Source: a virus. Taken from it: 64,000 nt of DNA. Positions within the stretch are counted from its first letter, which is position 1; each line of letters starts with the position of its first letter. The position numbers and the translations under genes are program-made. The notes beneath the pieces were generated by a model. It was not told where the DNA came from. It was given only the letters and a program-made list of their open reading frames with translations, and ran no database searches. The stretch lies in the IMG/VR virus record IMGVR_UViG_3300037808_000992, positions 1-64,000 of that record; one strand, 5' to 3'. Below, one piece after another: positions 1,941-27,777 of the stretch.

Positions 1941-3497
1941 ATGGCTATCGCTTACTCAAAGGCTGGTCGTAGTCGAGTGGAGAAATCTATGTTTAAGTCA
2001 GTAGAAGAGTCTTTGAGTAAGGGACCACCCGTTGAGAAAATTAAGATGAAAAGAAGCGGAAAAGCCGCGCAGGTTATTGACAAACGGCAGGGAAAGGATC
2101 CGTGGGGTGGTAAGTTTGGTGTTGCTGTACAGGCGGTAGATGCTGCGGCAAAAAATCTAAAGACTCTCAAAACCCCTGTGTCAGTCAGAGAACCCACCCC
2201 CGTCGTTAGACGAGAGCGGCGTAAATTGGTGACCGGGCTAGAGGGTGCGCCGGTTTTGCCAAAAAGTGATCCAGCCAAGGTCTTACCCAAAAATATTTCA
2301 AAAACATCGTTGGAATCGGCATCGAAATTTAAAGCTACTCCTTTTGTTAATAAGCAGGCCGCGAAGACGTATAAAGGGCTAAGGGCTGATCCCAATAATA
2401 AGGTTCTGACTGATATGGAACTTAAAACAATAGCTAATGATGAATACGGGGTTAAGAAATCTATGTTTAAGTCAGTTGAAAATTCTATGTTTAAAGGTGT
2501 TCTCTCTACTGAAGATCGGGAAGACCTAAAAGAAAAGCAGTTTGCGCTTCCCAAGAAGGCCGAAGACAAAGAAGAGAAAGCGGAATCGGGCAACTACCCC
2601 ATCCCAGATCTATCTCACGCACGCAACGCATTGGCTATGGTAGCCCAACACGGCACTCCTGCTGAACAAGCTCAGGTTCGGGCTGCTGTGCATAAGAAAT
2701 ACCCTGAATTGGACAACCAAACAGACGAGGAGTCTAAAATGGACAAGTCATTACCTAGTACTGTAGACCCTGCGCGAGCCGCAGCGATTAATGAACCTAT
2801 TATCTCTCGCGGAAACACTACCCGCAGACAAGTCGCCGAGCACATGGCTAAGTCGTTTAATACGGGCGCACCTGTATTTGTAGAGGAACCATTTAATGGT
2901 CGATTACGTAAAGGTGTAGTTATTCCTAAAGGTCAGGGTGTAAAAGAGGCAGCAGCACAGGTTGCGAGCGAAAAAAAAGGGCGCGTTGATTCGAGTGGTA
3001 GTAAGGCCGACTTGAAGGCTGCTATACAAGCTTCTGGCCAACCCGCAACCAGTAAACAGGAGAATCTATTAACTAAGCTGAAGCCTGTACAATCAAGAAC
3101 GTTTAAGACGGTCGCCCCCCAACAACCTGGAGTCCAGGCACCTATAGTTGGGCAATCTTCTCCTGCGCGGGATGAAATGATTGCTTCTATGAAAGCCGCT
3201 CCTTCTAATACTCAAGTAGCTACCTTTATAAAGAAGATGGGCGGTTACGGGGGGCAGCTTAGTGGTGAGGCGGGTGCTAATCAAACGGTAAAGTTTGGAC
3301 GTAGCAGTGCGCAGAAGGAATTTAATAACTTTACTGATGCCCAGAAAAATCAAGTGTGGGCTGCGTTTAAGCGCGGCGTCAAAAGAACTCGCCCCTCCGC
3401 CACAGCTAAGAGCCCTGTAGTTCAGAAGTTGAGAGAGGGTTTGGGTTTGGGACAACCGAAACAAGTTGCTCCTGGTAAAGAAGTAAAACCTCGATAG
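1941..3497 (+). CDS. Lys-rich putative internal virion protein with DUF6582-like segment
   Basis: 518 residues, rich in Lys, Ala and Pro and mostly low complexity. It opens with MAIAYSKAGRSR, the second half of a conserved peptide whose first half is upstream of the TGA. SMFKSVE occurs twice (about residues 17 and 175), encoded by an exact 20-nt repeat at 1983-2002 and 2457-2476. Residues about 216-253 (YPIPDLSHARNALAMVAQHG...) match a motif I know from phage structural proteins (DUF6582-like). The ATG follows the TGA directly with no ribosome binding site close by, implying reinitiation or readthrough. Its position before the polyvalent and portal genes, and its KS motifs, fit an internal head protein; the exact role is unknown. 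Confidence 0.65.
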   Translation: MAIAYSKAGRSRVEKSMFKSVEESLSKGPPVEKIKMKRSGKAAQVIDKRQGKDPWGGKFGVAVQAVDAAAKNLKTLKTPVSVREPTPVVRRERRKLVTGLEGAPVLPKSDPAKVLPKNISKTSLESASKFKATPFVNKQAAKTYKGLRADPNNKVLTDMELKTIANDEYGVKKSMFKSVENSMFKGVLSTEDREDLKEKQFALPKKAEDKEEKAESGNYPIPDLSHARNALAMVAQHGTPAEQAQVRAAVHKKYPELDNQTDEESKMDKSLPSTVDPARAAAINEPIISRGNTTRRQVAEHMAKSFNTGAPVFVEEPFNGRLRKGVVIPKGQGVKEAAAQVASEKKGRVDSSGSKADLKAAIQASGQPATSKQENLLTKLKPVQSRTFKTVAPQQPGVQAPIVGQSSPARDEMIASMKAAPSNTQVATFIKKMGGYGGQLSGEAGANQTVKFGRSSAQKEFNNFTDAQKNQVWAAFKRGVKRTRPSATAKSPVVQKLREGLGLGQPKQVAPGKEVKPR

Positions 3498-3514: not shown

Positions 3515-6500
3515 ATGGTTTACTTAAAAGACAGTTTATTTAAGGCGGTAGCCTCTGTTAAACCGCCAGTATCTATTCCACCACCTAAGGTTGAGGATGA
3601 TGAGGCTACCTCTGAAGTTGCCTCTCAAAAGACCCCTAATGTAGCTAAAAATCCTAAGGGTACGGATGGTCCTGCTGCGCGGGGCGGTCAAGTTGCAGGT
3701 ATTGCTAAACGTGGATTGGTTTATCAGTCAGAGAAGCAACGTCGTAATCCGACGTTTCCCACGGTTAATGTTCCTAAGCCTAAAAATACCCAAGTTTCTT
3801 TTAAGGTTAAAGATGTTAAGCCTGTAGCTCCTCTCAAACCCCCTCAACCACTTAAACCCCCTCAACCTTTTGAGTCACTCAAGGCGTCTATGCGCCATTA
3901 TTTGGATTTAGAAAAAGCGGAGAAGGGGTGGAATCCTACAGTTGTTACGCCAGGAAAAGAATTTACTGCAGGGGCTTCAGAAGTGGGCAATCAACCAAAG
4001 GGTCCTAACCCTAGTTTGAGCATGGGACCTACTCCTCAAGAGTTAGCGAGGAAAGAGGCTCAAGTAACTGCTACTCCAGAAGTAAAAACAGACTCTATTG
4101 AAGATGAAGGGCCTGTTGCCAAACCAATAGCGGTACAGCAAGGACCCACATCAACGCCTGAAGCAGGACCTACAGCGGCAGGACCTACAGCAGCAGGACC
4201 TACAGCAGCACCTGAAGCAGAACAGACACCACCAGCAACCAAACCAGTGTCAGCAGAGCAGACATCAGCACAGGCACCAGCAGAGCAGACATCAGCACAG
4301 GCACCAGCAGCGCCGCCAGTACCGAAGATGGTTGAGACGCCCACAGTACCAGGACAAGAGGTAAAGACGGTCAATCGTCCGTGTAGTCAAGGAACTACGG
4401 GCGGTACTTACGTTACAAAGACACCCACTGCGAATGGTTGTGCTTATATCTACAACCACCCCGAGAAGATGTCTCTTAGAGATTCAATGACGGGTAATGT
4501 TCTGCATGAGTGGGATCATAAAGATGTTCAAAATAACCAATTGGTTGTTCCCCCTAATATTGCTGAGCAACATGGGATTGACAAAGAAGCAGCTACATTG
4601 CCTCTTCGTCAAAATTGGAAAGAGCACCAACAAACAAATGTTAAATCTTCTGAGTTTGGTGAAAAGCATTTTGATAAAGATCACACTGAGGCTGTTAATC
4701 AGTGGAAGTCTGCTATAGCAAAGTTTAAAAGCAACCCTCATCACTATCACGAGGGTGGTGACGATCATGTAATTACGCAGGTGGGTCATCACGGAGCTTC
4801 TCTTTTAAATGAGCACCATGGTTCTAAATCGAAAGGGCTGGACGCATTACTTGCCGAGCATGAGCAGAAGCAAGCTAGAGTTAAAAAAGATGGGAACTTA
4901 GGTCCTGTTTACGAACAGATTAGATCTGGACAAGGGGCTGTTACTTTAGGCGGTTCCCATTCTGAGTTCCATCCTGATGCAATTAATCATATCCTCGCAC
5001 ATCCCCACGATCACTCCTTTGATGTAAGCAAGACGCCAGAGGGTCATATGACCGTCACCCTTCACGGGTACAGAGATCATGGAGATAAGCAGTGGCACGG
5101 TCGTTTAAACTCTCACGAAGCGGTTAGTCGGGTTGGGGGTCATGAGGCAGCAGCCGAACACCTCAGTAAGTATAACGATGCTCACCAAGCATTTTTTGAT
5201 GAGATTAAAGGTCGTCAAGAGCCTGTAGAGATCACCAACGAGAAGATTGTAAAACACATCACTAATAATGGTGATAAGTTTAATTTTGAGTTTATCCCCC
5301 ACGAGACGGACAAAGGGCAGGTTAAAGGGGTTCGTCTATTAGGTGTCAAACACCCCCATGCTTCGGATGAGGCGGGTGAGGGAGAGTGGGCTGGCGCTAA
5401 GCCTCCTAAAGGTGAGCGAACATTCTTACCTGCTAAAATTACTGAAGTAGAGACTAAGACAGATGTAACTGGCGCTGCGCCAGTACCGGGTGCTCCTATT
5501 AAGAAAACCCCTACACCTCCTGATTTAGGGGGTATAGAGAAGCTACCTCCAGATTTAAAAGAGGTGTTCAGGCCATTACCTCCTCAATCTACAGATCGGC
5601 AGAAGTTTGAGAAGTTAAAGCAGTGGGCTTTGGAGATGACGAAGCCAGAGCATCGACATGCTTCGGGCGGTTTGTTTAATGTGGGCGCTGCGTTAGCGTC
5701 TAAAGACATCGCAACAGCGGTTAGAGGTTTGTACAACACTGCGGCTCAAGGGATCCCCACAGTTGCGAATAACATACATGGCTCACTAGAGCGTGGTGAG
5801 AGGCGTGCGGCTCTTGAAGCCGAGCACAAGGTTTCTGAGAAAGACAAACATAAAACCAATCAATACCTTAGTGGTGAAAACTTTGGGCACTCAGATGTTC
5901 CAAAGACTGTAGGCACAACCAGTCACTGGTCTCCTAAACAACATACGCAATTTCATGCAGACTATGAAGCTCTCAGCAATGCGTATAAAGAGGACACTGA
6001 ACTCCCGAGTCATATAAAAGATCTGGTGTACGGTCACGTTTATGATCAGACCTTGCGTAAACATCGGATGACCGCTGATGTTGGAAGCGGTATCTACCAC
6101 AAGCAAACCACTCCTGCGCCTGAAGACATGGATGTGATGGATCACACCCTTAATGTAGTGGCTCACGATGCAGCACATCCTGATGAGGTAAAGAAGATAA
6201 AACAAAATATGCGTAAGTGGTCTAAAGAGACCCTTTATGAGTTTGGAGACGTACTAAGGCAGGCTCATGGGTTTGAAGACCCCCAAGACCGATACGACAT
6301 TATGATGTTGGCCCATCATAAAGGGAACACGCTGACGGGATTAGAGAATAAGACCCGTGCGATCTTTAATCGCACCCACGGCAAAGAAGTGGGTCAGATA
6401 AGCGCCAGAGATAAGTATACCGGTCCTAAGCTTTCCACCGCAGACCAACAGTGGAAGGACTACATGAAGGAAGTAGGTGCGGTAACCAAAGATTATGGGC

Positions 6501-9500
6501 GCACTCTCAAGGGCTATGAGAAGCAGATTGCGGCGTATGAAAAGAAGTACGAACACCATAAGAACAAATCGACGAAACATGATGCTGATGCTGCTGATAG
6601 GGGTAGGGAAACAGCAGTAGCCCCTGAATTACCTGCTAAAGCTCCCACAGAAGAAGCAGAAGCTACTCAAGCTGAAAAGTTATTAGGCGAGAAGAGAGAA
6701 GCTGCGGCTAAGAAGGAAACACCCTGGTGGCACAGCGAAGATGTTAACGAGAGTAGGACGTTTAAGCATGGAGTTCACCCTGATCAGAATGTAGGTAAGG
6801 TTATTGTTGATGATGTAACCGGCCAAAGGGGAGTCGTTGTCAGTGTTCACCCCGGTGATGATCAGACAAAGCCGCAGTACGGAATTAAGTTTATTAATGC
6901 CAATGCGCCCATACCGAAGACTAAAGAAGAGTTTCTTAAGTTAGAAGAGTCTGGAGATCACGTTACTACTGATCACCGTGATATTGATCGAGTTCATCTG
7001 AGTCACCAAGCGGGTACAGCAGCAACACCCTCTACAAATTCTGGAGTAGGTACCCATTGGAACTGGTCTAAGGTAGCGGCAGAGCATGTACCAGATGAGG
7101 CGAGATTTGCTAAGTATTCAGCAGAGTTAGGCAAGATTAAAAAAGAATTAAATATTGATCAGCCGCCTACTAAAGAGGAGATGGACCAGAAAGTTAAGGG
7201 TATGTCTTTGCATGAAAAGATAGAGGCGCGTAAGAGGGACGAGCTTAAAGGTGAACATAAAAAGAGTGTTGATAAACATTTTAAAGATAAGTCTGACAAA
7301 CAACTATCTGGCGAGTTCGAGGTTAAAGGTAATCCCAAATACAATGTAGGAACCGGGATTAGGCGTACAGACGGTACTTCGTTTATGATTAAACATTACG
7401 AAGGCCCAAACTCAGAACACCCCAATCGAAGTGAGTATATCACTGAAGAATTAGATGAAAATGGGAAGCTAGTTGAGGGTAAGATTTCTGCTTTAGAGCT
7501 TACTAAGCGTACTACTGGGGAGTCTAGGTGGAACGCTAGAAAACCAACGTGGCACCCTAGTTACTATGAAGATTTAAACACAAATCCAGATGCAAAATCT
7601 CGTTTTGAGAAAGATAGAGATTTAGAAGTTGCAGCACGGACTAGTAAGAAAGCTAAAGATGACACTCCGCTACCTACAAATCCTGAGGAATTAACCGAAG
7701 AGCATTTGACGCATCGTCCGAGAGCCCGTGTATCGTTTGATTTAGTAACTGAGGATTTACCCCACTCTAAAGAGATTGCGCACGGGATCTTTGGAGAGCA
7801 TGTACAGAATCTTAAAGATAAGGGAGTTCTCAAAGAAGAGTGGAGCATTCCTTTAGGCTACTCACATGGTGATGTAGATACGATGCCACAGCGATGGGCG
7901 CATTGGATTGCTCAAGTTGATGAGGCGGATAAAAATTATCTCGATGAAGAAGACCATGCGAGGTTCCACACAGCGCAGCAGGTATTTACAGAGCGTAAGA
8001 AAAAGTTACTAGATGAATACCGAGATACAATTAAGGCTGCGGCAGACTCTGGAGATGATAAGGCGTTAAAGAATAACCTCAATGCCTTTAGAGCCCGGTT
8101 GGTATTTGGAGAAGGTGGTTATCAAGATTTTGCAAATGTACTTAGAGGGTTAAAGACTAAAGTTAGAGACCGTAAGTACCAAGATAATCTTCCTTATAAT
8201 GATCCTTATGTAACTGCTGACGGCAGTGGTGCTGCTAAAGAGCTTACGAAGCTTAGACAGGATGCCCCTGAAGGTGTGGACACTAGCAAGCGCAGCATGA
8301 AAGCTAGTCTTGAGCTTGTGGAAGATTTGAAGGGCAAAGATGTAAGCATTACCGAAGATATTAAGGTTGAAGAGCCAGCAGACGTTGCCATGGCGGCAAA
8401 AGGACCTGGTAAAGAAAAAGCACCTACAGGTACAGAAGAAGCTCCTGTTGAGATGTCTAGATCTACTAAACGTAGGATTACGCAGGTTGGTAAGGATATA
8501 CAAACCCAATCTAGAGTTATTGAAAAGAAGCGAAAATCTTCTTTATACGACAACTTTAAAGCTGACATCGAAGCGCACCCCGATCACTTTAATGCTGAAG
8601 TAACAGATGACTCCATTACGATTCACGGTGTTAAAAACCATAAGACAGGTGAGTGGCATGGCCAGGAGTCTGTTGTTACCAAAGAGACGCCTGCTGCTGA
8701 AAGTGGGGATTTATCAGGCGGTATAAAAATTGAAGGCTCTGATAAAACCTATCGAATTACACCGGATGGCGTGGTTGAGTGGTTTACACCTAAGAACGAG
8801 TGGAGTTCGGTTAAAAATCTATCCATAAAAGATAAGGTTAAAGAGGCAGCAGGCGGCATTACGCCTAAGGTTAAGACCATCCCTTCTTCTGAACCAGAGT
8901 CTGAAGAATCTGACGATTATCGGGTGCAACATCAGCCAGCAGAAGATGGAGCGAGTGGTCACGAGATCGGAACCACAGATCATTTTCCAAAAGATATTCT
9001 TCAACACCCGGAGTTGTACACTACTCCGCTGGAACTTAGTGAAGTTAAAAAGTTTTGGCCTAAGATTGTAGCAGGGTCAGGTGATCCAGATGCAAAGATT
9101 ACTATTTATCGAGCAATGCCAAAGTCAGCGGGGAGTATCCTTGAAACTGGTAATTGGGTTACGCCGTCCAAGGCTTACGCTGAGCAACATGCCTACGGGG
9201 AAAAAGATTGGCATATCGTAGCCCACGAAGTTCCGCTTAAAGATATACGGTGGGATGGTAATAGCCTTATGGAGTGGGGCTACTTTGGCGCTGATAAAAC
9301 TAAGAAGGGTCCTGAATCTCAGTTTGCAAAGCATGGTAGGTATCTTTACCCAGTAGATGCTGAGGGGAATCCTGACACTGCAGAGAGTTCCGTACACAAG
9401 GTAGAGATTAATGGAGAACCTCGTTATATAACCCATGTCTTTGATGAACATTTAAATAGTAAGATATTTTATGAGTATAAAAAGGGTGCCGCTGACCCCC

Positions 9501-12500
9501 AGCGTGAAGGTCTTCCCAACGCTTATAAACTGAAAGATTTTATAGAGAAGTTAAGAGGCACTCCTGAATCTACTGCCAAACCTGAATCGCCACAGACGCA
9601 CGCTATAAATACTATTCCAATGTTTCGGGGTGCCCGAGTTGGAAAACCCCATGAGTTATCAGGGCCGTCCTTTTTCGCATCGAATGAATTGTTTGCCAAG
9701 ACGTATGGAAAGACTGCTGAATTTCAGTTGAGCGTTAAGAACCCTAAAGTAATCCCGTCTAATGAGTGGTCGGATACGCTGGGTATGTGGCAGGCAGTAT
9801 CCCCCGCTGACAAGAAGGCGTTTGATGCTGATCTGCGTGCGAAAGGCTACGATTCTGTAGTAAGTGAGTTTAATAACGGGGCTGTACACGTTGCCTATGT
9901 GCCTACACCGGAAGGTGTAGCGACTTTAAATAAACCAAAGAGTTCGCAGAAAGCTAAACCTGAACCTGCTCCCGAACCTGCTGCTAAACCTGCCCCGGAA
10001 CCTGCTGCTAAACCTGAACCCGCTACGAAACGCGGTTTCGCAGCAGAACCAATACAAGATCCCAACGGGGATTGGCGTGTTCAATTAGAAGTGGGGAATA
10101 AGCGATTTACTTCGCCTGATACTTACGAGTCTGAGGAAGCTGCTGATGATGCAGGCACTAGACACCTTAGTAAATTTGCTAATAAGTTTAAGACACCGCG
10201 AGATGCGCATGGCCCACTTCTAGCTCATGACGGTTGGCACTTATCTCACGTCCAACATGAGAAAGAGTGGAAGGGTATTCAGGAGGTGTCGCGAAAAGAC
10301 GTATTAGGAAAGAAGCATGGAATACCTGGGTCTGAGCAAGGGAGGCATATACAGCGTTTGGTGGATAGAGGTGTGTCTGTATCCCCTGAGACATTAAAGG
10401 AACATGGTATAGAACCTTCTAAGGAAGCAGCGCCCGTTGCTGAAGGTAAGCCATCGGAAGCCCCTAAAGGGGAAGACAAAAACCAATTAGCGTTAATGAG
10501 GAATGGTGATCCTGACGCTGCAGCCTATATCCAGAAGCGAGCCCAAGAATTAGTTCCGGGAGTTAGGATAGCAGAGTCACAGGATGTGGTTGCCCAACAT
10601 GTACACACCCCAGAAGGCATTACTGATGACTACGTAAATACTTTGAAAAAAGAGGGGCGTATTTCTAAGGAAGCAGCGACCGTTGCTGAAGGTAAGCCAC
10701 CGATCACTGGCAAAAGTGCAGAAGAAAACATGAAGGAAGTAGAAGAGCACTCAGCTAAGATTAAGTCGTTGGGTTTGGTGCCCAAAATAACAAGGGGTGT
10801 TTTAGGCGATGAGTTTAGGTGGGTTAAAGCTACTATCCCTGATGAATCTAAAATTGATGGTATTGAGCTTCACAGTGCTGGCGACCCTGATAAGAAAAAG
10901 TTGATTCATAGAAGTCCTGGTGAGAAGGGACGTTGGCAGGTGTCTAATTTTGATGAGGATGGTCCGATCTCACACAGTACCCACGATACTGCCCAAAAAG
11001 CATTAGATCATGCAATGGAGCCCAGTGATAGGGTCTCTGATGTAACTTATAAGAAAGCCAAAAAAGGTCACGTAGGAAAAGCAGATACGGTTTATATCCC
11101 TCCGTCTGGAGAGACTACGAAAGCCAGTGACCACCTCTTTAAGTATGAAGTTCTGGAAGCGGGCGATGTTACAGCTTCCCATCTTCCTAAGCGGAAAGGG
11201 AAGGCATTCTCTAGAGACCCTGACTACAAAGAGAGATTTCAACCGCGCTCTCAATACGATCAAGAGGGATCTGAAAAAGTAGCGAACATTAACGATGCCG
11301 TGGGTAATTTCCAACCTGAACGAGTCAACAATCTCACCAACAATCCATCAGGAGGTGCTCCTATAATCCATGATGTAGATGGTAGAAATATGGTGTTGAG
11401 CGGTAATGGCCGCACCTTAATTCAAAAAATTATCTACGATAAAAAACATGGGAGTGAAGGATCTGCTAATCGAATAAGAGAGCACTTGATTAAGAATGCT
11501 GCTGAGTTTGGTTTAAATCCTGCTGAAGTTGAAAAGTTTACTAATCCTATTCTAGTACGTCGTATCACTGACCATTCGCATGATGAGTTAGAGGATGTGG
11601 CGCGCCGATCAAACATTGACGAGGGTGTTGCCCAAACAAAATCTGAGAGAGCAGAAGATATTGCGAAAAAGCTCCCCCAAGCATTACATCAACTGACTGA
11701 GAACTATGACCATGAAGTGCATGGAGACAAATCTTTAAACGCCCTGCTTTCAAGCATTAAGAGTTTTAATAAAGAGGCTACTAATGCTTTAGGGCGAAGT
11801 AATACTAAAAATAATGAGGGATCGGAGCTTCATGATAGCGGCAGAAAGCTTTTAGCTAGCTCTATTCTAGGTCATGTGGGTGGGAAGAAAGGATCTCAAC
11901 TGCTTGGAACTATGACCAAGGAAGAGGGTAATTTACAAGGGCGATTAGAGTCTTTGGCAGTTCCGTTGTTTATTTTAAATAAAGAACGACCTCAGGTTGG
12001 GAAGGCGTTTACTAGAGCGTTAGAAGATTTAAATGTGATTTATAACCAACACGGGCAGAAAGGTAGTTTAAGTAGTTTAGTAGATTCTTATAACCAACAG
12101 CAAAATTTGTTCGGTACTGCTGAGGAAGTAGGTAAGCGAGAACTGCACCTTACTAAGGATCCTATGGTGCGTGCGTTAGCACAGCTAGCCCATGGAGGGA
12201 CCGTTACCAACAAAGAGGGTGAAGAGGTTAAGTTAGGCGCGTCTGAGGCGAAACAATTAATAAATAATCTGTATTCAGATTTAAAATCGCCCCAGAGAGA
12301 TTTATTTGCAGAAGAAGATGTTGACGCAAAAGAGAGGTCTGCGTTTAATAAATTAGGGAGTGCGTTAGGGATTGAAGGGTTAAAACCTTCAGGGAAAGCT
12401 CCCGAAGCCAAGACCAAAGAGCGGGTCCCAAAAAAATCATCTCAAGTGTCTATTGAAAGCCCGCACTCTCAAGCAGTTCACCCTAGCGAGATGGATACGG

Positions 12501-14890
12501 ATAGTCGATATACTCTGTGGCAGAGGGTAGGCGGTCATTGGGTCATTGAGCGTAGTTTGGGAGGGGCACATATTAAAGGCGATCCTACTTACGCTGATGC
12601 TATAGCAGAAAAAGCGGCGAGTAGTCGTCCAGTAGCTTTCTTTGAAGAGGGTGTCGATCCTAATTCAGAAAAATCCCCTACCACTAAACCTACTCCTGCT
12701 AAGGCTTCTGAAAAAACTAAAGAAACAACGCTTACTACCAGGGTTACGGAAGATTTTGATGCACACATAGGCATAGCTAGGGAGGAGGTTGCTAAAAAGA
12801 CTACTGATCGCCAGAAGGCAAGTGTATTAGGCTCCGTTGTGGCTGGGATTCATCCAGATGCAGGCGCACGAATTGTAAGGGACATGGTTAACGAGAACCC
12901 AGGGATTATGGAGCACTTACCTATCGCAGTGCGGAATCAACTCAAGGTGAAGTCGGAAGAAAAAGCCCCAACTAAACCTAAGGCTAAAGCAGCTGCTGGC
13001 AAAGCAGGTGTCCAACAACTTGCAGATAAGCTACGCAAGGAATATGGGGTAAAGCTACAATTAGGACATACCAATTCCTCGCATTCCTCCCATAGCGGTA
13101 TCACAACACTGGATAGCGTTGTGGTTCCCAAGGAAAAACGGGGGGAAGGTGTCGGAGATGCGGTCATGGACGCGATAAAGCAGCACGCAGATAAGCATGG
13201 GCACACGATTGTTCTTACTCCAGATCCAACGATTGGTGGCGGAAAGGGTAGCAAAGCGAAATTACGGCGGTGGTACAAACGTCACGGCTTTGTTGCGAAT
13301 AAAGGGCGCAATAAAGATTACGAATTTAGCGAGACAATGTATCGAAGTCCCCAAAAAGCAGATGTTGGCAAGAAGCCCGCTACTAAAACTAAAGCTGCAA
13401 CTCCAAAGAGTTTAGGTAAGCACTTAGATAAGCTTATGAAGGACCACCCCGATTGGCCCAGTAAGGCTCGTACACGTCGAGAGATTGAGGTAGCTGCGTA
13501 TTCTTCCCAGGCTCACCTAGACCACGTGTTGGAGCATGGCGATACGGCGGACAGTCTGTTTGGAGATAAGCTTCCCTTAGATAAGGTTAGGGACAGGCTG
13601 CGACCGGGTATGGTTATAGATGCTTATGTAAAGGCTACCCCGGCACATAAAGATGAAGCTGGTAAGTGGGCACACGATGAAGGTGACGAAAATACGCACA
13701 TGATAACGGTTACGTTGCCCGGTAAATATAAAGAAGATCCTAAAAAGAAAGATCCTGCATGGCCTGCTGTACGTCGTAGTAAATCAGGAGGTGTGTGGGC
13801 GAGCCCTGACGCCAAACCCATTGATAAATTTGGCAGCACAAATAATTACTATCGCAAGATGCAGGCTCATGAAAAAAATATTGAGAAACACTTGGGAAGT
13901 TCAGCGGCGTTACTCCCAGAGAAAATATCCAAGCTACAGAAAGAGGTAGATGACCCTAAGACAACAGATACCAAAAAAATATTGGATTTAAAGAAACAAA
14001 TTAGGCGTGCTGAGAAAGCTCTTGATACCCATAATATCTTTAAAGATGGCTTTGTAGAAAGGTGGAAAGCTCTTCACTCTGAGCACCCTGAAAAAGAATT
14101 TTTACCGGATCCTTTAAAGCAGAAGACTGAGAAGCGAAGTAGAGATGTTGCGGAGTTGGTTGAAGAGTATGGGGATATGGGGGGCGTATATAATAAGTTG
14201 ACGAAGACACCCTCATCTCAAACTCCTGACGATATAAAAGGTGCTCTGGGACAAGCAAGATCGGCATGGACGGAATTAGGAGATGCCCCTACCACCCAAC
14301 AGAAGCAAGCATTTATTGATGCGTTTAAGAAACTACCTTCCAAAGAAGAAACTCTTGCTTCGTTTGAGAAGAAGTTCCGCTCTAGTATTGGCGGGGCCTA
14401 TGACAATCTTGAGAAGCAACACGCATCCCTGACCAAGAAAGTCCGTAGTACACCCACAAAATCACCGGTTAAAGCTGTGGTACAACAATCGACTAGGAAA
14501 CGCGATCCGTTGCCCCTTGCGAATCAAAAAAAGTATGCTGATGAACTACGGACTGCTCTCACCAGTAGCATGGGTGTTGATGCCGCAGCACGCAATTTTG
14601 CAAGAGCCCTTGGGATGGACCCAGAGAGTCCTGAATTTGACGCAGCATTTGATCAAGCGGAAGCAGGTAAGCACCCTTCTCAAAAAACTAAGAAACGTAA
14701 ACCCCGTACAAAAGTTAAAAAATCTAAAGAGCCCGGTGGTGATTTTCAAGTAGCGGCGAAATACTTTGCTAGAGATCCTAAAACGAAAGAACTTGCGATA
14801 GGCCCTGATGGGAATTATGTACCTAAAGGGTCAGAGCATGATCCCAATAAAAAAGTTAAAAAGAGTCTGTGGTTATATGTTACGTGCTAA
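3515..14890 (+). CDS. Giant polyvalent protein (two ART-like domains, DdrB/ParB-like, GNAT)
   Basis: 3,791 residues with GAGG about 5 bases before the ATG. N-terminus: KDSLFKAV, then Pro/Ala-rich linkers. About 1800-1940: IYRAMP, GNWVTPSKAYAEQH and DGNSLMEWGY, the signature of a phage ADP-ribosyltransferase-like domain. About 2030-2130: a second, different ART-like domain (MFRGAR, GPSFFASNELFAKTYG, GYDSVV). About 2540-2725: DdrB-like ParB-superfamily domain (EVLEAGDVTASH, GAPIIHD, SGNGRT). About 3165-3280: GNAT acetyltransferase (VVVPKEKRGEGVGDAVMD, RWYKRHGF). A 45-residue beta repeat occurs three times (486-530, 577-628, 1678-1720). This architecture matches polyvalent proteins, which are thought to be injected with phage DNA to modify or protect against host systems. 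The extreme C-terminus carries GNYVPK...KKVKKS, shared with the scaffold candidates, suggesting head packaging. Substrates are unknown. Confidence 0.85.
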   Translation: MVYLKDSLFKAVASVKPPVSIPPPKVEDDEATSEVASQKTPNVAKNPKGTDGPAARGGQVAGIAKRGLVYQSEKQRRNPTFPTVNVPKPKNTQVSFKVKDVKPVAPLKPPQPLKPPQPFESLKASMRHYLDLEKAEKGWNPTVVTPGKEFTAGASEVGNQPKGPNPSLSMGPTPQELARKEAQVTATPEVKTDSIEDEGPVAKPIAVQQGPTSTPEAGPTAAGPTAAGPTAAPEAEQTPPATKPVSAEQTSAQAPAEQTSAQAPAAPPVPKMVETPTVPGQEVKTVNRPCSQGTTGGTYVTKTPTANGCAYIYNHPEKMSLRDSMTGNVLHEWDHKDVQNNQLVVPPNIAEQHGIDKEAATLPLRQNWKEHQQTNVKSSEFGEKHFDKDHTEAVNQWKSAIAKFKSNPHHYHEGGDDHVITQVGHHGASLLNEHHGSKSKGLDALLAEHEQKQARVKKDGNLGPVYEQIRSGQGAVTLGGSHSEFHPDAINHILAHPHDHSFDVSKTPEGHMTVTLHGYRDHGDKQWHGRLNSHEAVSRVGGHEAAAEHLSKYNDAHQAFFDEIKGRQEPVEITNEKIVKHITNNGDKFNFEFIPHETDKGQVKGVRLLGVKHPHASDEAGEGEWAGAKPPKGERTFLPAKITEVETKTDVTGAAPVPGAPIKKTPTPPDLGGIEKLPPDLKEVFRPLPPQSTDRQKFEKLKQWALEMTKPEHRHASGGLFNVGAALASKDIATAVRGLYNTAAQGIPTVANNIHGSLERGERRAALEAEHKVSEKDKHKTNQYLSGENFGHSDVPKTVGTTSHWSPKQHTQFHADYEALSNAYKEDTELPSHIKDLVYGHVYDQTLRKHRMTADVGSGIYHKQTTPAPEDMDVMDHTLNVVAHDAAHPDEVKKIKQNMRKWSKETLYEFGDVLRQAHGFEDPQDRYDIMMLAHHKGNTLTGLENKTRAIFNRTHGKEVGQISARDKYTGPKLSTADQQWKDYMKEVGAVTKDYGRTLKGYEKQIAAYEKKYEHHKNKSTKHDADAADRGRETAVAPELPAKAPTEEAEATQAEKLLGEKREAAAKKETPWWHSEDVNESRTFKHGVHPDQNVGKVIVDDVTGQRGVVVSVHPGDDQTKPQYGIKFINANAPIPKTKEEFLKLEESGDHVTTDHRDIDRVHLSHQAGTAATPSTNSGVGTHWNWSKVAAEHVPDEARFAKYSAELGKIKKELNIDQPPTKEEMDQKVKGMSLHEKIEARKRDELKGEHKKSVDKHFKDKSDKQLSGEFEVKGNPKYNVGTGIRRTDGTSFMIKHYEGPNSEHPNRSEYITEELDENGKLVEGKISALELTKRTTGESRWNARKPTWHPSYYEDLNTNPDAKSRFEKDRDLEVAARTSKKAKDDTPLPTNPEELTEEHLTHRPRARVSFDLVTEDLPHSKEIAHGIFGEHVQNLKDKGVLKEEWSIPLGYSHGDVDTMPQRWAHWIAQVDEADKNYLDEEDHARFHTAQQVFTERKKKLLDEYRDTIKAAADSGDDKALKNNLNAFRARLVFGEGGYQDFANVLRGLKTKVRDRKYQDNLPYNDPYVTADGSGAAKELTKLRQDAPEGVDTSKRSMKASLELVEDLKGKDVSITEDIKVEEPADVAMAAKGPGKEKAPTGTEEAPVEMSRSTKRRITQVGKDIQTQSRVIEKKRKSSLYDNFKADIEAHPDHFNAEVTDDSITIHGVKNHKTGEWHGQESVVTKETPAAESGDLSGGIKIEGSDKTYRITPDGVVEWFTPKNEWSSVKNLSIKDKVKEAAGGITPKVKTIPSSEPESEESDDYRVQHQPAEDGASGHEIGTTDHFPKDILQHPELYTTPLELSEVKKFWPKIVAGSGDPDAKITIYRAMPKSAGSILETGNWVTPSKAYAEQHAYGEKDWHIVAHEVPLKDIRWDGNSLMEWGYFGADKTKKGPESQFAKHGRYLYPVDAEGNPDTAESSVHKVEINGEPRYITHVFDEHLNSKIFYEYKKGAADPQREGLPNAYKLKDFIEKLRGTPESTAKPESPQTHAINTIPMFRGARVGKPHELSGPSFFASNELFAKTYGKTAEFQLSVKNPKVIPSNEWSDTLGMWQAVSPADKKAFDADLRAKGYDSVVSEFNNGAVHVAYVPTPEGVATLNKPKSSQKAKPEPAPEPAAKPAPEPAAKPEPATKRGFAAEPIQDPNGDWRVQLEVGNKRFTSPDTYESEEAADDAGTRHLSKFANKFKTPRDAHGPLLAHDGWHLSHVQHEKEWKGIQEVSRKDVLGKKHGIPGSEQGRHIQRLVDRGVSVSPETLKEHGIEPSKEAAPVAEGKPSEAPKGEDKNQLALMRNGDPDAAAYIQKRAQELVPGVRIAESQDVVAQHVHTPEGITDDYVNTLKKEGRISKEAATVAEGKPPITGKSAEENMKEVEEHSAKIKSLGLVPKITRGVLGDEFRWVKATIPDESKIDGIELHSAGDPDKKKLIHRSPGEKGRWQVSNFDEDGPISHSTHDTAQKALDHAMEPSDRVSDVTYKKAKKGHVGKADTVYIPPSGETTKASDHLFKYEVLEAGDVTASHLPKRKGKAFSRDPDYKERFQPRSQYDQEGSEKVANINDAVGNFQPERVNNLTNNPSGGAPIIHDVDGRNMVLSGNGRTLIQKIIYDKKHGSEGSANRIREHLIKNAAEFGLNPAEVEKFTNPILVRRITDHSHDELEDVARRSNIDEGVAQTKSERAEDIAKKLPQALHQLTENYDHEVHGDKSLNALLSSIKSFNKEATNALGRSNTKNNEGSELHDSGRKLLASSILGHVGGKKGSQLLGTMTKEEGNLQGRLESLAVPLFILNKERPQVGKAFTRALEDLNVIYNQHGQKGSLSSLVDSYNQQQNLFGTAEEVGKRELHLTKDPMVRALAQLAHGGTVTNKEGEEVKLGASEAKQLINNLYSDLKSPQRDLFAEEDVDAKERSAFNKLGSALGIEGLKPSGKAPEAKTKERVPKKSSQVSIESPHSQAVHPSEMDTDSRYTLWQRVGGHWVIERSLGGAHIKGDPTYADAIAEKAASSRPVAFFEEGVDPNSEKSPTTKPTPAKASEKTKETTLTTRVTEDFDAHIGIAREEVAKKTTDRQKASVLGSVVAGIHPDAGARIVRDMVNENPGIMEHLPIAVRNQLKVKSEEKAPTKPKAKAAAGKAGVQQLADKLRKEYGVKLQLGHTNSSHSSHSGITTLDSVVVPKEKRGEGVGDAVMDAIKQHADKHGHTIVLTPDPTIGGGKGSKAKLRRWYKRHGFVANKGRNKDYEFSETMYRSPQKADVGKKPATKTKAATPKSLGKHLDKLMKDHPDWPSKARTRREIEVAAYSSQAHLDHVLEHGDTADSLFGDKLPLDKVRDRLRPGMVIDAYVKATPAHKDEAGKWAHDEGDENTHMITVTLPGKYKEDPKKKDPAWPAVRRSKSGGVWASPDAKPIDKFGSTNNYYRKMQAHEKNIEKHLGSSAALLPEKISKLQKEVDDPKTTDTKKILDLKKQIRRAEKALDTHNIFKDGFVERWKALHSEHPEKEFLPDPLKQKTEKRSRDVAELVEEYGDMGGVYNKLTKTPSSQTPDDIKGALGQARSAWTELGDAPTTQQKQAFIDAFKKLPSKEETLASFEKKFRSSIGGAYDNLEKQHASLTKKVRSTPTKSPVKAVVQQSTRKRDPLPLANQKKYADELRTALTSSMGVDAAARNFARALGMDPESPEFDAAFDQAEAGKHPSQKTKKRKPRTKVKKSKEPGGDFQVAAKYFARDPKTKELAIGPDGNYVPKGSEHDPNKKVKKSLWLYVTC
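4164..4306 (+). repeat. Pro/Ala-coding tandem repeats in the giant gene
   Basis: Two short tandem arrays encode the flexible N-terminal linker: a 15-nt unit (GPTAA) about three times at 4164-4208, and a perfect 27-nt unit (AEQTSAQAP) twice at 4253-4306. Exact nucleotide identity suggests recent slippage expansion. A comparable Pro-Ala-Glu linker made of KPAPEPAA-like units lies at about 9955-10025 between the second ART-like domain and the next domain. Confidence 0.75.
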
Positions 14891-17752: not shown

Positions 17753-19930
17753 ATGAGTTTATTAGAAAAAGCTTTCGGCAAAGTACTTATACCTTCTATG
17801 GAGGAGACCTACGCCATCAATAAGGCGGGTCCTATAGATGGGTCTCCTGTTAAGGGACCCCCGAAAGCGATGATGTGGGATCCAATGAGTTTAGTTTACT
17901 CGTTGGGTTATAAAGATCGTCGAAGTAACGTGACTTACGACACACTTCGGCTGATTTCCAATCAGTTAGGTGTCATCGCAGCAATCATTAATACTCGCGT
18001 TAACCAAGTGGCTACCTTTGCCGTACCTTATAGACGCAACCGAAATATTGGTTTTGAGATTAAGCATAAAGATAAAGACCATAAACTCACTGATTCAGAG
18101 AAAAAGTTTATTCTTGAGTTAGAGTTGTTTATGGCGAACTGCGGAAGTCCTAAAAAGAACAAATACGTTTCTCGCAAACGAGATGATTTTGAGCTTTTTA
18201 CTCGCAAGGTCATTCGAGATCGGATGATATTTGACCAGTTATGCTTTGAGGTTGTTCCTGATAGGCGAGGGGTTCCGTTCGAGTTTGTGGCTGTAGATGC
18301 TTCGACTATGCGTATTGCTGCTGCAATTGACGCTAAGTCTATGAAGTACTTTGACAAGCATAAGAGTAGCGGTGAAAAACAGTTTTTAGAGGAGTATGGG
18401 AGCGCAAACCTTACTCAGTTCCCGAGTATTCTAAAAGACAAACTGGGCGATGCTGCTTATTGCCAGATTTGGAACGGATCTATTGTTCGGGCCTTTACGC
18501 AGGACGAGTTGGCTTTCTGTATTTCTAATCCTCGTACCGATATCCGTGTTAACGGTTACGGTCTTTCAGAGTTAGAGCAGTTGGTTAATGTTATTACGTC
18601 TCAATTGTGGGCTGAGGAATACAACCGTAACTTCTTTAAGCAGGGCGCTGCCCCCAAAGGGTTACTGAATATTCGAGGGGATAACATCGCCCCTGAACAA
18701 CTTGAAGCGTTTCGTAGAGAGTGGGTTGCAAATGTGTCTGGCGCTGCTAATGCATGGCGCACTCCTATTTTGCAGAGTGAAGAAGTCCAATATCTTAATA
18801 TGCAGGGCTCCAACTTGGACATGGAGTTCAGTCGGTGGCTTGAATACTTAATCAAAGTAATTTGTGCTTGCTACTTAATTGCCCCGGAAGAGATTGGTTT
18901 TTATCTAACACCGGGCGGTATGCAACAGCCCATGTTCGATTCGAACAACGAGTGGAAACTTAAAGCTTCGAAAGATAGGGGTCTTCGTCCTTTACTACGT
19001 TTCTATGCATCGTCTCTTAATAAAAACGTAATTGATCATATAGATGACCACTTCTATCTAGACTTTGTTGGGTTGGATGAGCTTACGGAACGAGAGCGCA
19101 TTGAACTTCACCAAAGTCAGGTGCAGTTTTTCCGAACTATTAATGAGGTTCGTAAAGATGAGGATCTACCTCCGATAGATGATGGTGATATTGTTATGAA
19201 TCCTGTTTATCTGCAGAAACTTCAAATGGAGCACGCTTGGAAAGTTGAAGCTCAAACTCTTAAGGATCAGAAAAAGGCTCAAGAAGAGCAGATGAAGATT
19301 CAGAAAGAGCAGCACAAACAACAAATGATTGCTCAGAAACAGCAGATGGTTTCTCAGAAGAAACAAGAGAAGCAACAAGAGAAGCAAGTTAAGCAACAGG
19401 AAGAGGCTCAGAAACAGCAGATGGATATGCAGCAACAACAGGTTGCGATGCAACAACAGCAGTTAGGGGGAGAAGCACCACCTGAAGGAGCACCACCTGA
19501 AGGAGCACCACCTGAAGGAGCACCACCTGAAGGAGCACCACCTGAAGGAGCACCACCTGAAGGAGCACCACCTGAAGGAGAGGGTACCCCTTCAAATGAA
19601 GAGTTAGCTGCCGTTGCTCAACAAATGGGTGCAACACCTGAGGAAGTTAAGGGTGCGGCCAAAGAGACGGGAATACCCGCTGAAGCCGCTGAAAAGATCG
19701 AAGAGCAAGTAGAAACCCCTGAAGGAGAAGAGACTGCTGAAGTTAGTGAAGAGCAGGTAGAAACTCCCGAAGGTGAGGAAACCACAGAAGAGAGTGAGGC
19801 AGTTGGAGAAGACGTATCTCCTAAGGAATTACAGGAGTTTATTAATTCTTTGCCCCCCGAATCTTTTAGACGTAATGTAAGACCGGTGGAAAAGAGCATC
19901 GGGTACACTGAGGAAGATGACGATGAGTAA
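17753..19930 (+). CDS. Portal protein
   Basis: 725 residues. Residues about 60-420 carry typical portal features: [20 protein letters not shown] helix, an [14 protein letters not shown] helix with [32 protein letters not shown], then [16 protein letters not shown] and the long segment leading to [10 protein letters not shown]. It would form the dodecameric ring at the head vertex through which DNA passes and to which the neck attaches. The N-terminus ([11 protein letters not shown]) and C-terminus (VEKSIGY) bear KS/KA motifs. Residues about 495-570 are a Gln-rich coiled coil, followed by seven APPE-type repeats and an acidic tail, a long extension compared with usual portals. It overlaps the next gene. 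Confidence 0.9.
19472..19578 (+). repeat. Seven 15-nt repeats coding GAPPE in the portal tail
   Basis: A 15-nt unit with core GCACCACCT is repeated seven times with almost perfect identity and encodes one EAPPE plus six GAPPE. The near-perfect nucleotide identity points to recent expansion. In the protein it separates the Gln-rich coiled coil from an acidic C-terminal tail, so repeat number would set the length of a flexible linker. Confidence 0.85.
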
Positions 19931-25516: not shown

Positions 25517-26287
25517 ATGGTCGAAGAAAATACATTTGATTTCTGGGTTCCTATCAGCAAGTCCAAGGCTGCTGACGACGGGAAGTCTCGTGTTATAGAG
25601 GGAATCGCCTCTACGGCTGATATGGATCTTCAAAACGAACGTGTAGAGCCTAACGGAATCGACTTTGATTATTTTTTAAAGCACGGCTACTTTAATTGGG
25701 ACCACAAACCCGGAGCCCAGAATAAAGTGGGTGAGCCTTTAGAGTGTAAAATTACTCCTAAGGGACTCTACGTTAAGGGTATCGTTTACAAGGGTAAGCA
25801 AGTGGCTGACGCTGTGTGGGAGCACATCAAAGCGTTAGGTAACAACCCCGACTCTCAACGGAAAATGGGATTTTCTTTACAGGGAAAAACCACTCGTCGA
25901 AACGGAAAAAACATCCTTCGGTGCTGGGTGCAGGACATCGCAATTACGACCGCCCCTATTAATTACAATACATATTTAGACATCGTTAAGTCATTAGGCG
26001 AGGTTAATTGGTGCGAGACACCTGACGCAAATGACTGCGTTTGTTGTAAATCATTTAATATGGCGCAGGGTGGCAAAGTTACCACCCCCGAGTCTCTTCA
26101 TGACGACACCACAGTCGTAACTTACAATCTTAGTGATAAGGATGAAGAAGAGAAAGAAGAAGAAAAGAAGCGAGAGAAAAAGAAAATTACTAAGAAAAGT
26201 CTTGCAACCTCAATTTCAAATAAATTAGGTTACTCAAGTCAAAGTTCAGAACTTTTGGCCGATGTGCTATTTGCACTTTCTTATTAG
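25517..26287 (+). CDS. Prohead (capsid maturation) protease
   Basis: 256 residues. NWDHKPG (H63) and KMGFSLQGKT (S120), separated by an amphipathic linker, followed by CWVQDIAITTAPIN, match the His-Ser layout of the assemblin-like prohead protease fold (U35/S78 and T4 gp21 type). Such proteases cut scaffold and head proteins during maturation. The first 165 residues form the protease; the tail is acidic then basic, ending in KKITKKSLATSISNKLG, which may be a self-cleaved scaffold-like extension. It precedes two scaffold candidates and the capsid gene, the expected order. Confidence 0.8.
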   Translation: MVEENTFDFWVPISKSKAADDGKSRVIEGIASTADMDLQNERVEPNGIDFDYFLKHGYFNWDHKPGAQNKVGEPLECKITPKGLYVKGIVYKGKQVADAVWEHIKALGNNPDSQRKMGFSLQGKTTRRNGKNILRCWVQDIAITTAPINYNTYLDIVKSLGEVNWCETPDANDCVCCKSFNMAQGGKVTTPESLHDDTTVVTYNLSDKDEEEKEEEKKREKKKITKKSLATSISNKLGYSSQSSELLADVLFALSY

Positions 26288-26298
26288 GAGATATTTAG

Positions 26299-27027
26299 AT
26301 GAGTCAGATTATTAAACCACTTCCTGGGAAACATGAAGATGGAGTCTTTTGGGCCGATGGTGACATGGATACCTACGATGACATGGCCGAAGGCGAACTC
26401 CATGTTGATGAAGACGGTAATTATGTACCCAAGTCGGTGAAGAAAAGCGTTCGTCTTTATAGTGGCCTTATTCACAATGACGATCTTCTCAAAGCAATGA
26501 GTGATGAGAACGAAGACGAAGACGACCAAGGCGAAGAAGAAGAGGTTGAAGCAGACCTGGAAGAGAAGGTAACTAAATCCTTCTTTAGCTTTGTCGAAGA
26601 TAACCCGGTTATCGTTGAGGGAATTAATAACTCCCCATTCTTATACGAAATGGTTAAGTCACTTGGTTTAACCTTCTTAAGTTTAGAAGATCGAGTTGGC
26701 GCATCCTTGCACCAGGTAGACTCAGACTTTACTGAGTTTGCTAAAAGCTTAGATTTTGTATTTGATGATCTTGGTAAGAGCATCAGCACAATCAATGGAA
26801 CTGCAGGTCAAATGGACATGCATAAGTCTATTGACGGCGCTGACACTGACGAAGTTCAGTACCTTGAAAAGAGTGGCTTTGAGCCAGAGCAAACTATGTC
26901 CCGCGAAGATGTGCTTTCTCGCCTCGTTAAGGGTGTAGAAGAGGGTAAGATTCCTCCTCTAGCCGTAATGAAGTATGAGCACACTGGCTTCCTGGGTCCT
27001 GATATCCAAAAAAGCATTGGGCTGTAG
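26299..27027 (+). CDS. Acidic scaffold candidate 1
   Basis: 242 residues with AGGAG before the ATG. Strongly acidic middle (EDEDDQGEEEEVE), predicted helical, with repeated KS motifs (VKKSVRLY, LLKAMS, VKSLGL, AKSLDFVFDDLGKSI, QKSIGL). The N-terminus holds DGNYVPKSVKKS. The last 50 residues (VLSRLVKGVEEGKIPPLAVMKYEHTG) are nearly the same as the end of the next gene's product. Length, acidity, helix content and position between protease and capsid suggest a prohead core or scaffold protein; sequence alone does not prove it. Confidence 0.65.
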   Translation: MSQIIKPLPGKHEDGVFWADGDMDTYDDMAEGELHVDEDGNYVPKSVKKSVRLYSGLIHNDDLLKAMSDENEDEDDQGEEEEVEADLEEKVTKSFFSFVEDNPVIVEGINNSPFLYEMVKSLGLTFLSLEDRVGASLHQVDSDFTEFAKSLDFVFDDLGKSISTINGTAGQMDMHKSIDGADTDEVQYLEKSGFEPEQTMSREDVLSRLVKGVEEGKIPPLAVMKYEHTGFLGPDIQKSIGL

Positions 27028-27039
27028 GGAGTACTAAAA

Positions 27040-27777
27040 ATGTCTGAAACTAGATTTGAATCGGATTTAGTAAAGTCTCTTGAGAAACTTGACGAGATTT
27101 TAACTAAATCACAAATAGGCATCACAGGTCATACCGGTGACGAGCCTGAGGAGTGGGAAGGCGGCGACGTTACCCACTATGACACTGACAAAGACGCAAA
27201 GTGGGTCGATAAAGATTACATCACCGAGGGTGGCGATTATGAGCCCAAGAAGGTGAAGAAAGCTTACGACGACGATGATGAAAGCGCCGAAGATAAGCGA
27301 ATTGGTGCGGACGAAGAAGATGAGTGGGAAGCTGGGAAGAAAGCGGGCGAAGACGTTAAGAAAGGCGTTGAAGTCAGTGAGTTCCTTTCTGAGCTTACCA
27401 AGTCTATCGCTCTGTACTCCAACTACCTTGAGGGGTATATGGAAAAATCCATTCTTCAACTTCATGAAGAGCATGGCGGAATGGCAAAAGCAATTGCCGA
27501 GAATCTTGTTACTTTGAGTGACATGATTCAGAAATCCGAAGGAAACATCTCTGACTTCGCTGAAGAGCCTACGCGGGCTCCTAAGAGTATGATGAGTTTG
27601 GAAAAATCGATTGAAGGTGGGGATGAAGTTCCTCAGATGTCAAGCGATGATATTTTAAATAGATTGGTTAAGGGCGTCGAGGACGGCATCGTGTCACCTC
27701 TTGAGGTCATCAAGTTCGAGCAACTTGGTCCTCAAGCACTAAATCAAGACGTGGTTAAGAGCCTTTTAGCTTCTTAG
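27040..27777 (+). CDS. Acidic scaffold candidate 2 (paralogue)
   Basis: 245 residues, GGGAG before the ATG. It shares with the preceding product the C-terminal block ILNRLVKGVEDGIVSPLEV plus IKFEQLG, and an N-terminal GGDYEPKKVKKA in place of DGNYVPKSVKKS, so the two arose by duplication. Acidic linker, then helices around ELTKSIALYSNYLEGYMEKSI. The two may co-assemble as the prohead core and be cut by the protease. It ends 10 bases before the capsid gene and shares its C-ending codon preference. Confidence 0.65.
   Translation: MSETRFESDLVKSLEKLDEILTKSQIGITGHTGDEPEEWEGGDVTHYDTDKDAKWVDKDYITEGGDYEPKKVKKAYDDDDESAEDKRIGADEEDEWEAGKKAGEDVKKGVEVSEFLSELTKSIALYSNYLEGYMEKSILQLHEEHGGMAKAIAENLVTLSDMIQKSEGNISDFAEEPTRAPKSMMSLEKSIEGGDEVPQMSSDDILNRLVKGVEDGIVSPLEVIKFEQLGPQALNQDVVKSLLAS

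What the first reader, a model, noticed from the sequence alone, without database searches (positions are those of the whole stretch)
3515..14890. A 3,791-residue putative injected effector combining two ADP-ribosyltransferase-like domains, a DdrB/ParB-like domain and an acetyltransferase
Seen: IYRAMP...GNWVTPS...DGNSLMEWGY (ART-like), a second ART-like domain at about 2030-2130, the SGNGRT DdrB/ParB-like block, and a GNAT with the RGEGVGDAVMD loop. Known: such combinations define phage polyvalent proteins, thought to enter the host with DNA and modify host or anti-phage targets. Inference: this protein is packaged in the head, because it sits beside the portal and shares motifs with scaffold candidates. 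The large middle regions with no recognisable family may hold more domains.
Basis: partly seen in the sequence, partly recalled or inferred. Interest (0 to 1): 0.75.

Follow-up and report, generated by a model that had tools for sequence, protein, structure and literature searches.

The report
Giant head-packaged phage effector, protease-trimmed
An uncultured tailed phage carries a 3,791-residue protein built from several enzyme-like domains, and both of its ends carry a short sequence that looks like the cut-site tag this phage family uses when it builds its head, which suggests the protein is loaded into the virion, trimmed there and delivered with the DNA.

Summary
The ORF is real (3515-14890, 3,791 aa) and lies in an SPO1-like head module. 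DdrB-ParB (PF18763, E 5e-14) and a GNAT core are confirmed. The first 'ART' is a genuine phage domain family (phrog_2579), but no ART fold was matched. The second 'ART' is below every cut-off. The packaging inference is strengthened. A motif h-x-K-[SAG]-h is about 25-fold over chance in both scaffolds (10 and 9 hits against 0.4 expected) and in SPO1's own scaffold (8 against 0.34). It falls on the known K24|S25 maturation site of the homologous phage 812 capsid protein. The giant has only three strict hits, one of them at each end (residues 8-12 and 3781-3785). The C-terminal tag K-[SG]-L-x-L-Y-V recurs at the same distance from the stop codon in relatives whose interiors differ. Best reading: a phage-type polyvalent protein loaded into the prohead, trimmed at both ends by the head protease and ejected with DNA. 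Packaging, cutting and enzyme activities remain untested. New variant of a known kind.

The parts
3515..14890 (+). giant polyvalent-type protein, 3,791 aa (stop codon included)
3515..3544 (+). predicted N-terminal tag, residues 1-10 MVYLKDSLFK, proposed cut before A11
   Evidence: motif LFKAV at residue 8; same pattern at G001 giant N-terminus LYLDSKLFKG and in other head-cluster genes
5537..6445 (+). conserved helical block, residues 675-977, shared by giants of three phages
   Evidence: blastp 29% (6e-23) to G001, 35% (1e-46) to L018; helical AlphaFold model pLDDT 74, no PDB match
7307..8242 (+). module shared with L018 and L017, residues 1265-1576
8915..9307 (+). first 'ART-like' domain, residues 1801-1931; family phrog_2579 ('ParB C-terminal domain')
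   Evidence: no ART fold match
9614..9934 (+). second 'ART-like' stretch, residues 2034-2140
   Evidence: PF18760 E 0.083 over residues 2041-2126, below cut-off; not found
11129..11566 (+). DdrB-like ParB domain, residues 2539-2684
   Evidence: PF18763 E 5e-14; P1 DdrB / P7 matches; wider shared block 2518-2823 with L017
12464..12691 (+). short module, residues 2984-3059, shared with L017 and L018
13013..13366 (+). GNAT-containing block, residues 3167-3284 (Pfam core 3196-3260)
14708..14887 (+). C-terminal tail, residues 3732-3791, with candidate cut sites after K3736, K3771 and K3783 (KVKK|SLWLYVTC)
1941..3497 (+). upstream 518-aa protein, 8 strict K-[SAG] motifs (0.83 expected)
17753..19930 (+). 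portal protein
25517..26287 (+). head maturation protease (phrog_1028), proposed processing enzyme
26299..27027 (+). scaffold 1, 10 K-[SAG] motifs (0.41 expected); contains DGNYVPKSVKKSVRLY resembling the giant's tail
27040..27777 (+). scaffold 2, 9 K-[SAG] motifs (0.36 expected)
27788..29257 (+). major capsid protein; its single strict motif LTK|AL (K29) aligns with the K24|S25 maturation site of phage 812

Best explanation
The gene encodes a phage-type polyvalent protein loaded into the SPO1-like prohead as part of the inner core. Steps shown by sequence: a large mosaic protein with a DdrB-like ParB domain, a GNAT core, a conserved helical block and a phage-specific effector-type domain; a short motif h-x-K-[SAG]-h at both ends, of the kind that saturates the scaffolds and marks the capsid protein's known maturation site. 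Steps inferred: the terminal peptides hold the protein in the prohead; the head maturation protease (25517-26287) cuts after K10 and K3783 (possibly also K134, K3736, K3771) while shredding the scaffolds; the trimmed ~3,770-residue protein stays with the DNA and is ejected with it; in the new host its domains modify host or defence targets (DdrB-ParB on DNA, GNAT on a protein or other amine).
For: ORF and domains. SPO1-like head module: MCP ~40% identical to SPO1 gp6.1, portal, protease, scaffolds. Motif statistics: scaffolds 10 and 9 observed against ~0.4 expected, most tail proteins near chance; same in relatives' scaffolds and, as a test set after the motif was fixed, in SPO1 gp3.3 (8 vs 0.34) and EalM-132 (8 vs 0.27). 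Cut-site anchor: phage 812 MCP is deposited full length (5lii) and as a chain starting at S25, after VVK (9row), and that site aligns with LTK|AL here. In the giant only 3 strict motifs, two at the extreme ends (rough chance estimate ~3e-4, post hoc); loose motif depleted overall (11 vs 19.8, p about 0.02), with 5 of 11 in the first 137 or last 60 residues. The C-terminal motif begins 10 residues from the end in G000, L005, L015, L017, L018 and 12 in L009 (tails) although interiors are swapped. Precedents: P1 DarB is directed to the capsid by its N-terminal 30 residues (PMC9024508); giant-phage head proteins lose propeptides to the prohead protease (PMC10052503).
Against: No virion proteomics is known to me for this uncultured phage. 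The cleavage anchor is one site in one homologous protein, read from deposited chain sequences; P1' = A or G is extrapolated. K|S cutting of scaffolds is not shown. The G001 giant lacks a C-terminal motif of its own (a separate downstream gene carries it) and has internal motif hits. L010's C-terminal TEKSLSLFVRI misses the strict motif. The motif is not exclusive to head proteins (helicase at 77254-78561, 5 vs 0.78). Cargo activities are predictions; neither ART is supported and GNAT is below the Pfam cut-off.
Confidence: 0.7

Rival explanations
1. The K-[SAG] motifs are docking motifs (scaffold-capsid or scaffold-protease binding) rather than cut sites. The giant is still recruited into the prohead by its ends but is not trimmed.
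For: Motifs are spaced along the scaffolds and recur at fixed distances from the C-terminus (-6 in both scaffolds, -10 in giants), which also suits a binding motif.
Against: The one instance with solved structures, the phage 812 capsid protein, begins exactly after this lysine in its mature form. Propeptides of head proteins can be cut several times by a prohead protease (PMC10052503).
Confidence: 0.17
2. The giant is a structural or assembly protein of the head core (length or size determinant) whose enzyme-like domains are decayed. It is not delivered as an effector.
For: Large conserved helical block, long low-complexity linkers, GNAT and ART scores below cut-off. P1 DarA combines head-size and delivery roles (PMC12810830).
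Against: The DdrB-ParB domain is intact by profile score and keeps the SGNGRT block. Interiors vary strongly between relatives, as expected of effector cargo rather than core structure. SPO1 has no such gene just upstream of its portal.
Confidence: 0.1
3. The first ART-like domain (1801-1931) is a divergent ADP-ribosyltransferase, and the protein is a T4 Alt-like NAD-dependent modifier. (Compatible with packaging; this rival concerns only the cargo chemistry.)
For: Conserved IYRA, GDWVTxSxxYA and NSLxEWGY blocks resemble R-S/T-E signatures. The family co-occurs with GNAT-like and ART-like stretches in other large phage proteins (L073, L079). ART is the commonest modifying domain in polyvalent proteins (PMC5512222).
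Against: A confident model of the domain gave no PDB match at E <= 0.001 and no ART among the 50 hits shown. The viral-structure library returned only members of its own family at E <= 0.001. No Pfam or NCBIfam ART model matches it.
Confidence: 0.3

Closest known systems
Polyvalent proteins of phages (Iyer et al. 2017, PMC5512222)
   Same: Very large multidomain protein encoded among late head genes, with DdrB-ParB and a GNAT; interior exchanged between relatives.
   Different: In an SPO1-like head module; the terminal K-[SAG] tags shared with the scaffolds were not mentioned in the passages read; no zincin metallopeptidase domain detected; ARTs unsupported.
Phage P1 DarB / DdrB (Dar antirestriction system)
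   Same: Head-packaged giant protein; DdrB-type ParB domain; N-terminal targeting signal within the first 30 residues of DarB (PMC9024508).
   Different: P1 shows no consensus among Dar signals by BLAST (PMC9024508); here the signal-like motif is visible and shared by many head proteins. One polypeptide carries the cargo.
T4 internal proteins and Alt (capsid targeting sequence, gp21 protease)
   Same: Core proteins with a removable targeting peptide, packaged and injected.
   Different: From general knowledge, the T4 protease cuts after glutamate; here the predicted cut is after lysine, and tags lie at both ends.
DarB-like antirestriction / PLxRFG giants (Klebsiella phage ZX1, Serratia phage Parlo, Pseudomonas phage Skulduggery)
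   Same: The GNAT block (residues 3167-3284) is 43-45% identical.
   Different: No other part aligned in the tblastn; those giants lie beside lysis genes.

Membership tests
Phage-type polyvalent proteins | two or more effector-type domains in one polypeptide | tested here: met
   DdrB-ParB E 5e-14 and GNAT block plus phrog_2579 domain
Phage-type polyvalent proteins | encoded among virion structural / packaging genes | tested here: met
   portal, protease, scaffolds and MCP downstream
Phage-type polyvalent proteins | packaged and injected with the DNA | not testable with these tools
   only indirect: terminal motifs
DdrB-like ParB | profile match above the curated cut-off with the SGNGRT block | tested here: met
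   52.9 bits against 27.6; SGNGRT at 2629
GNAT acetyltransferase | acetyl-CoA-binding R/Q-x-x-G-x-G/A loop and profile match | tested here: inconclusive
   loop KRGEGVG present; 23.1 bits against a cut-off of 27
ADP-ribosyltransferase (domain 1, residues 1801-1931) | ART fold or profile match | tested here: not met
   no PDB fold match; no ART profile
ADP-ribosyltransferase (domain 2, residues 2034-2140) | ART-PolyVal profile match above cut-off | tested here: not met
   14.1 bits against 31.2, E 0.083; none
SPO1-like head-protease substrate | h-x-K-[SAG]-h motif at the termini, as at the known MCP site | tested here: met
   LFKAV at 8 and VKKSL at 3781; MCP anchor
SPO1-like head-protease substrate | actual cleavage in the prohead | not testable with these tools
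   needs N-terminal mapping of virion proteins

The most novel reading that the evidence does not exclude
SPO1-like phages share a readable head-loading code: an N-terminal (L/V)YLxxx(L/I)(F/Y)K|(A/G/S) tag and a C-terminal K|SLxLYV tag, both removed by the head protease, that load any internal cargo. The giant is the largest such cargo, and other injected effectors of this phage lineage could be found by the tag alone.
Probability: 0.4. Interest if true: 0.7.

Novelty: new variant of a known kind. Interest (0 to 1): 0.56.

Why it matters
Claims that polyvalent proteins are packaged usually rest on gene neighbourhood. Here the sequence itself carries a protease-type tag at both ends, tied to a known capsid maturation site, so packaging and trimming become specific, testable predictions in culturable SPO1-like phages. 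A general tag would let injected effectors be listed from genomes. Because the predicted cut is after lysine, trypsin-based virion proteomics cannot distinguish such sites from digestion products, so they may have been overlooked.

Tried and rejected
Whole-protein Pfam scan missed DdrB-ParB, found only when pieces were scanned. Close relatives of the DdrB block in viral contigs: none. Residues 1-1800 against phages: no match. Second ART against phages at E<=1: none; PF18760 in own record and ten others: only Pseudoalteromonas phage Y7, with which the second ART showed no convincing alignment. Fold searches for the helical block and the ART-like region: no useful PDB match. Fusion by frameshift between G001's giant and its downstream gene: rejected as unnecessary, the downstream gene has its own ribosome-binding site and ATG. 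The pattern LYVKGIxYKG in the protease was set aside because it recurs in every relative's protease at the same place and probably belongs to the enzyme core. Genome-contig hits came from one low-coverage Myxococcales MAG, whose called ORFs showed no giant; host left undecided. Literature: no report of a K|S head-protease code in SPO1-like phages was found in the held library; from memory, N-terminal processing of phage 812 and A511 capsid proteins has been published, so the MCP site itself is not new.

Full report
Observation. The ORF at 3515-14890 is intact, starts with ATG and encodes 3,791 residues. The window is bases 1-64,000 of a 100,984-base viral record. The module is myoviral and SPO1-like: portal 17753-19930, head protease 25517-26287, two scaffold-like proteins 26299-27777, capsid protein 27788-29257 (~40% identical to SPO1 gp6.1), sheath and baseplate genes downstream. 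The terminase, DNA polymerase, helicase, primase and recombinase lie further along the record.

Domains. Scanned in pieces, residues 2539-2684 match Pfam ddrB-ParB at E 5e-14, and tblastn finds P1 DdrB and P7. Residues 3196-3260 match a GNAT at E 1e-4, below the Pfam cut-off, but the surrounding block is 43-45% identical to DarB-like giants of Klebsiella, Serratia and Pseudomonas phages. Residues 1770-1930 match phrog_2579, 'ParB C-terminal domain', at 1.6e-27. The family also occurs as small proteins in Mycobacterium and Vibrio phages and inside other large phage proteins. Its predicted fold is confident (pLDDT ~93) yet matches nothing useful in the PDB, and the viral-structure library returns only its own family. 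So 'ART' is a motif resemblance, not a supported assignment. The second ART scores 14.1 bits against a 31.2-bit cut-off and has no phage match at E<=1.

Relatives. Portal searches found a dozen close relatives and a broader Herelleviridae-like set. In the same place several relatives carry giants: G001 has 3,097 aa plus a separate downstream gene, L017 at least 1,907 aa and L018 at least 2,226 aa. Pairwise comparison shows a mosaic: the helical block 675-977 is shared with G001 and L018, DdrB with G001 and L017, other modules with L017 and L018, whereas the ART-like and GNAT regions had no counterpart in this comparison. L017 and L018 are cut off at their 5' ends, so absence there is not proven.

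The tag. The motif h-x-K-[SAG]-h occurs 10 and 9 times in the two scaffolds where ~0.4 is expected from shuffles, 8 times in the 518-aa protein just upstream of the giant, and at about chance in most tail proteins. Not every protein outside the head module is at chance: the DnaB-like helicase at 77254-78561 has 5 against 0.78. The same density is seen in relatives' scaffolds. As a test set after the motif was fixed, SPO1 scaffold gp3.3 has 8 against 0.34 and its protease 4 against 0.50, whereas most other SPO1 proteins are near chance (one ribonucleotide reductase subunit has 4 against 1.07); EalM-132 behaves alike. In the capsid protein the single strict motif, LTK|AL, aligns with VVK|SF of phage 812, and the deposited mature 812 chain begins exactly at that serine. 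This makes a head-protease cut site the simplest reading.

The giant's ends. In 3,791 residues there are three strict motifs, at 8, 2828 and 3781; one lies at each end. A rough, post hoc estimate for both ends is 3e-4. The loose motif is depleted (11 against 19.8, p about 0.02), and 5 of its 11 copies lie in the first 137 or last 60 residues. The C-terminal form K-[SG]-L-x-L-Y-V begins 10 residues from the end in G000, L005, L015, L017 and L018, and 12 in L009. L010 ends in the related TEKSLSLFVRI but misses the strict pattern. The N-terminal form MVYLKDSLFKA resembles MSANLYLDSKLFKG in G001 and the starts of other head-cluster proteins; five such matches are found in the head cluster against 0.33 expected, one of them probably a protease-core coincidence.

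Mechanism and limits. The best reading is a polyvalent protein held in the prohead core by its ends, trimmed by the head protease and ejected with the DNA. Shown: sequence, domains, motif statistics, conserved tail, capsid anchor. Inferred: targeting, cutting, ejection, activity. P1 DarB, directed to the capsid by its N-terminal 30 residues, is the closest tested precedent (PMC9024508). DdrB-ParB domains are reported only from phage-type polyvalent proteins (PMC5512222). Not resolved: the host, the function of the helical block, the chemistry of the two ART-like regions, and whether A and G are true P1' residues.

Noticed in passing
1941-3497: 518-aa protein with 8 strict K-[SAG] motifs (0.83 expected), duplicated VEKSMFKSVE / VKKSMFKSVE; looks like a further processed core protein.
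   Followed up: partly
L014:7593-16883 and L014:16855-18195 continuing into L005:1-777: In G001 the giant is split into two overlapping, separately started genes: N-terminal tag on the first, C-terminal tag on the second. The 128-kb contig's ends overlap by ~140 bases.
   Followed up: yes
L057:5576-8842, L020:5559-8792, L042:1267-4458: Herelleviridae-type relatives carry a ~1,070-1,090-aa protein upstream of the portal with an HExxH-like stretch; the L057 copy ends in a KKSLGLFVDL-type tail and a homologue is annotated only as hypothetical in Exiguobacterium phage EalM-132.
   Followed up: partly
L073:3239-8434, L079:3236-7828: Other large phage proteins combine the phrog_2579 domain with ART-like (YHGT / YHGG) and GNAT-like stretches; L079 has two copies of the domain.
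   Followed up: partly
window 10016-10180, 10898-11026, 12500-12640: Three stretches of the giant (residues ~2168-2222, 2462-2504, 2996-3042) resemble one another and DUF2188-type repeats; only one has a weak Pfam hit (E 0.04).
   Followed up: no
38927-41740: Tail sheath is 937 aa, with the sheath profile matching only the C-terminal part (575-928); a long N-terminal part was not matched.
   Followed up: no
77254-78561 of the record (L002:17254-18564): The DnaB-like helicase also has more K-[SAG] motifs than expected (5 vs 0.78), so the motif is not exclusive to head proteins.
   Followed up: no
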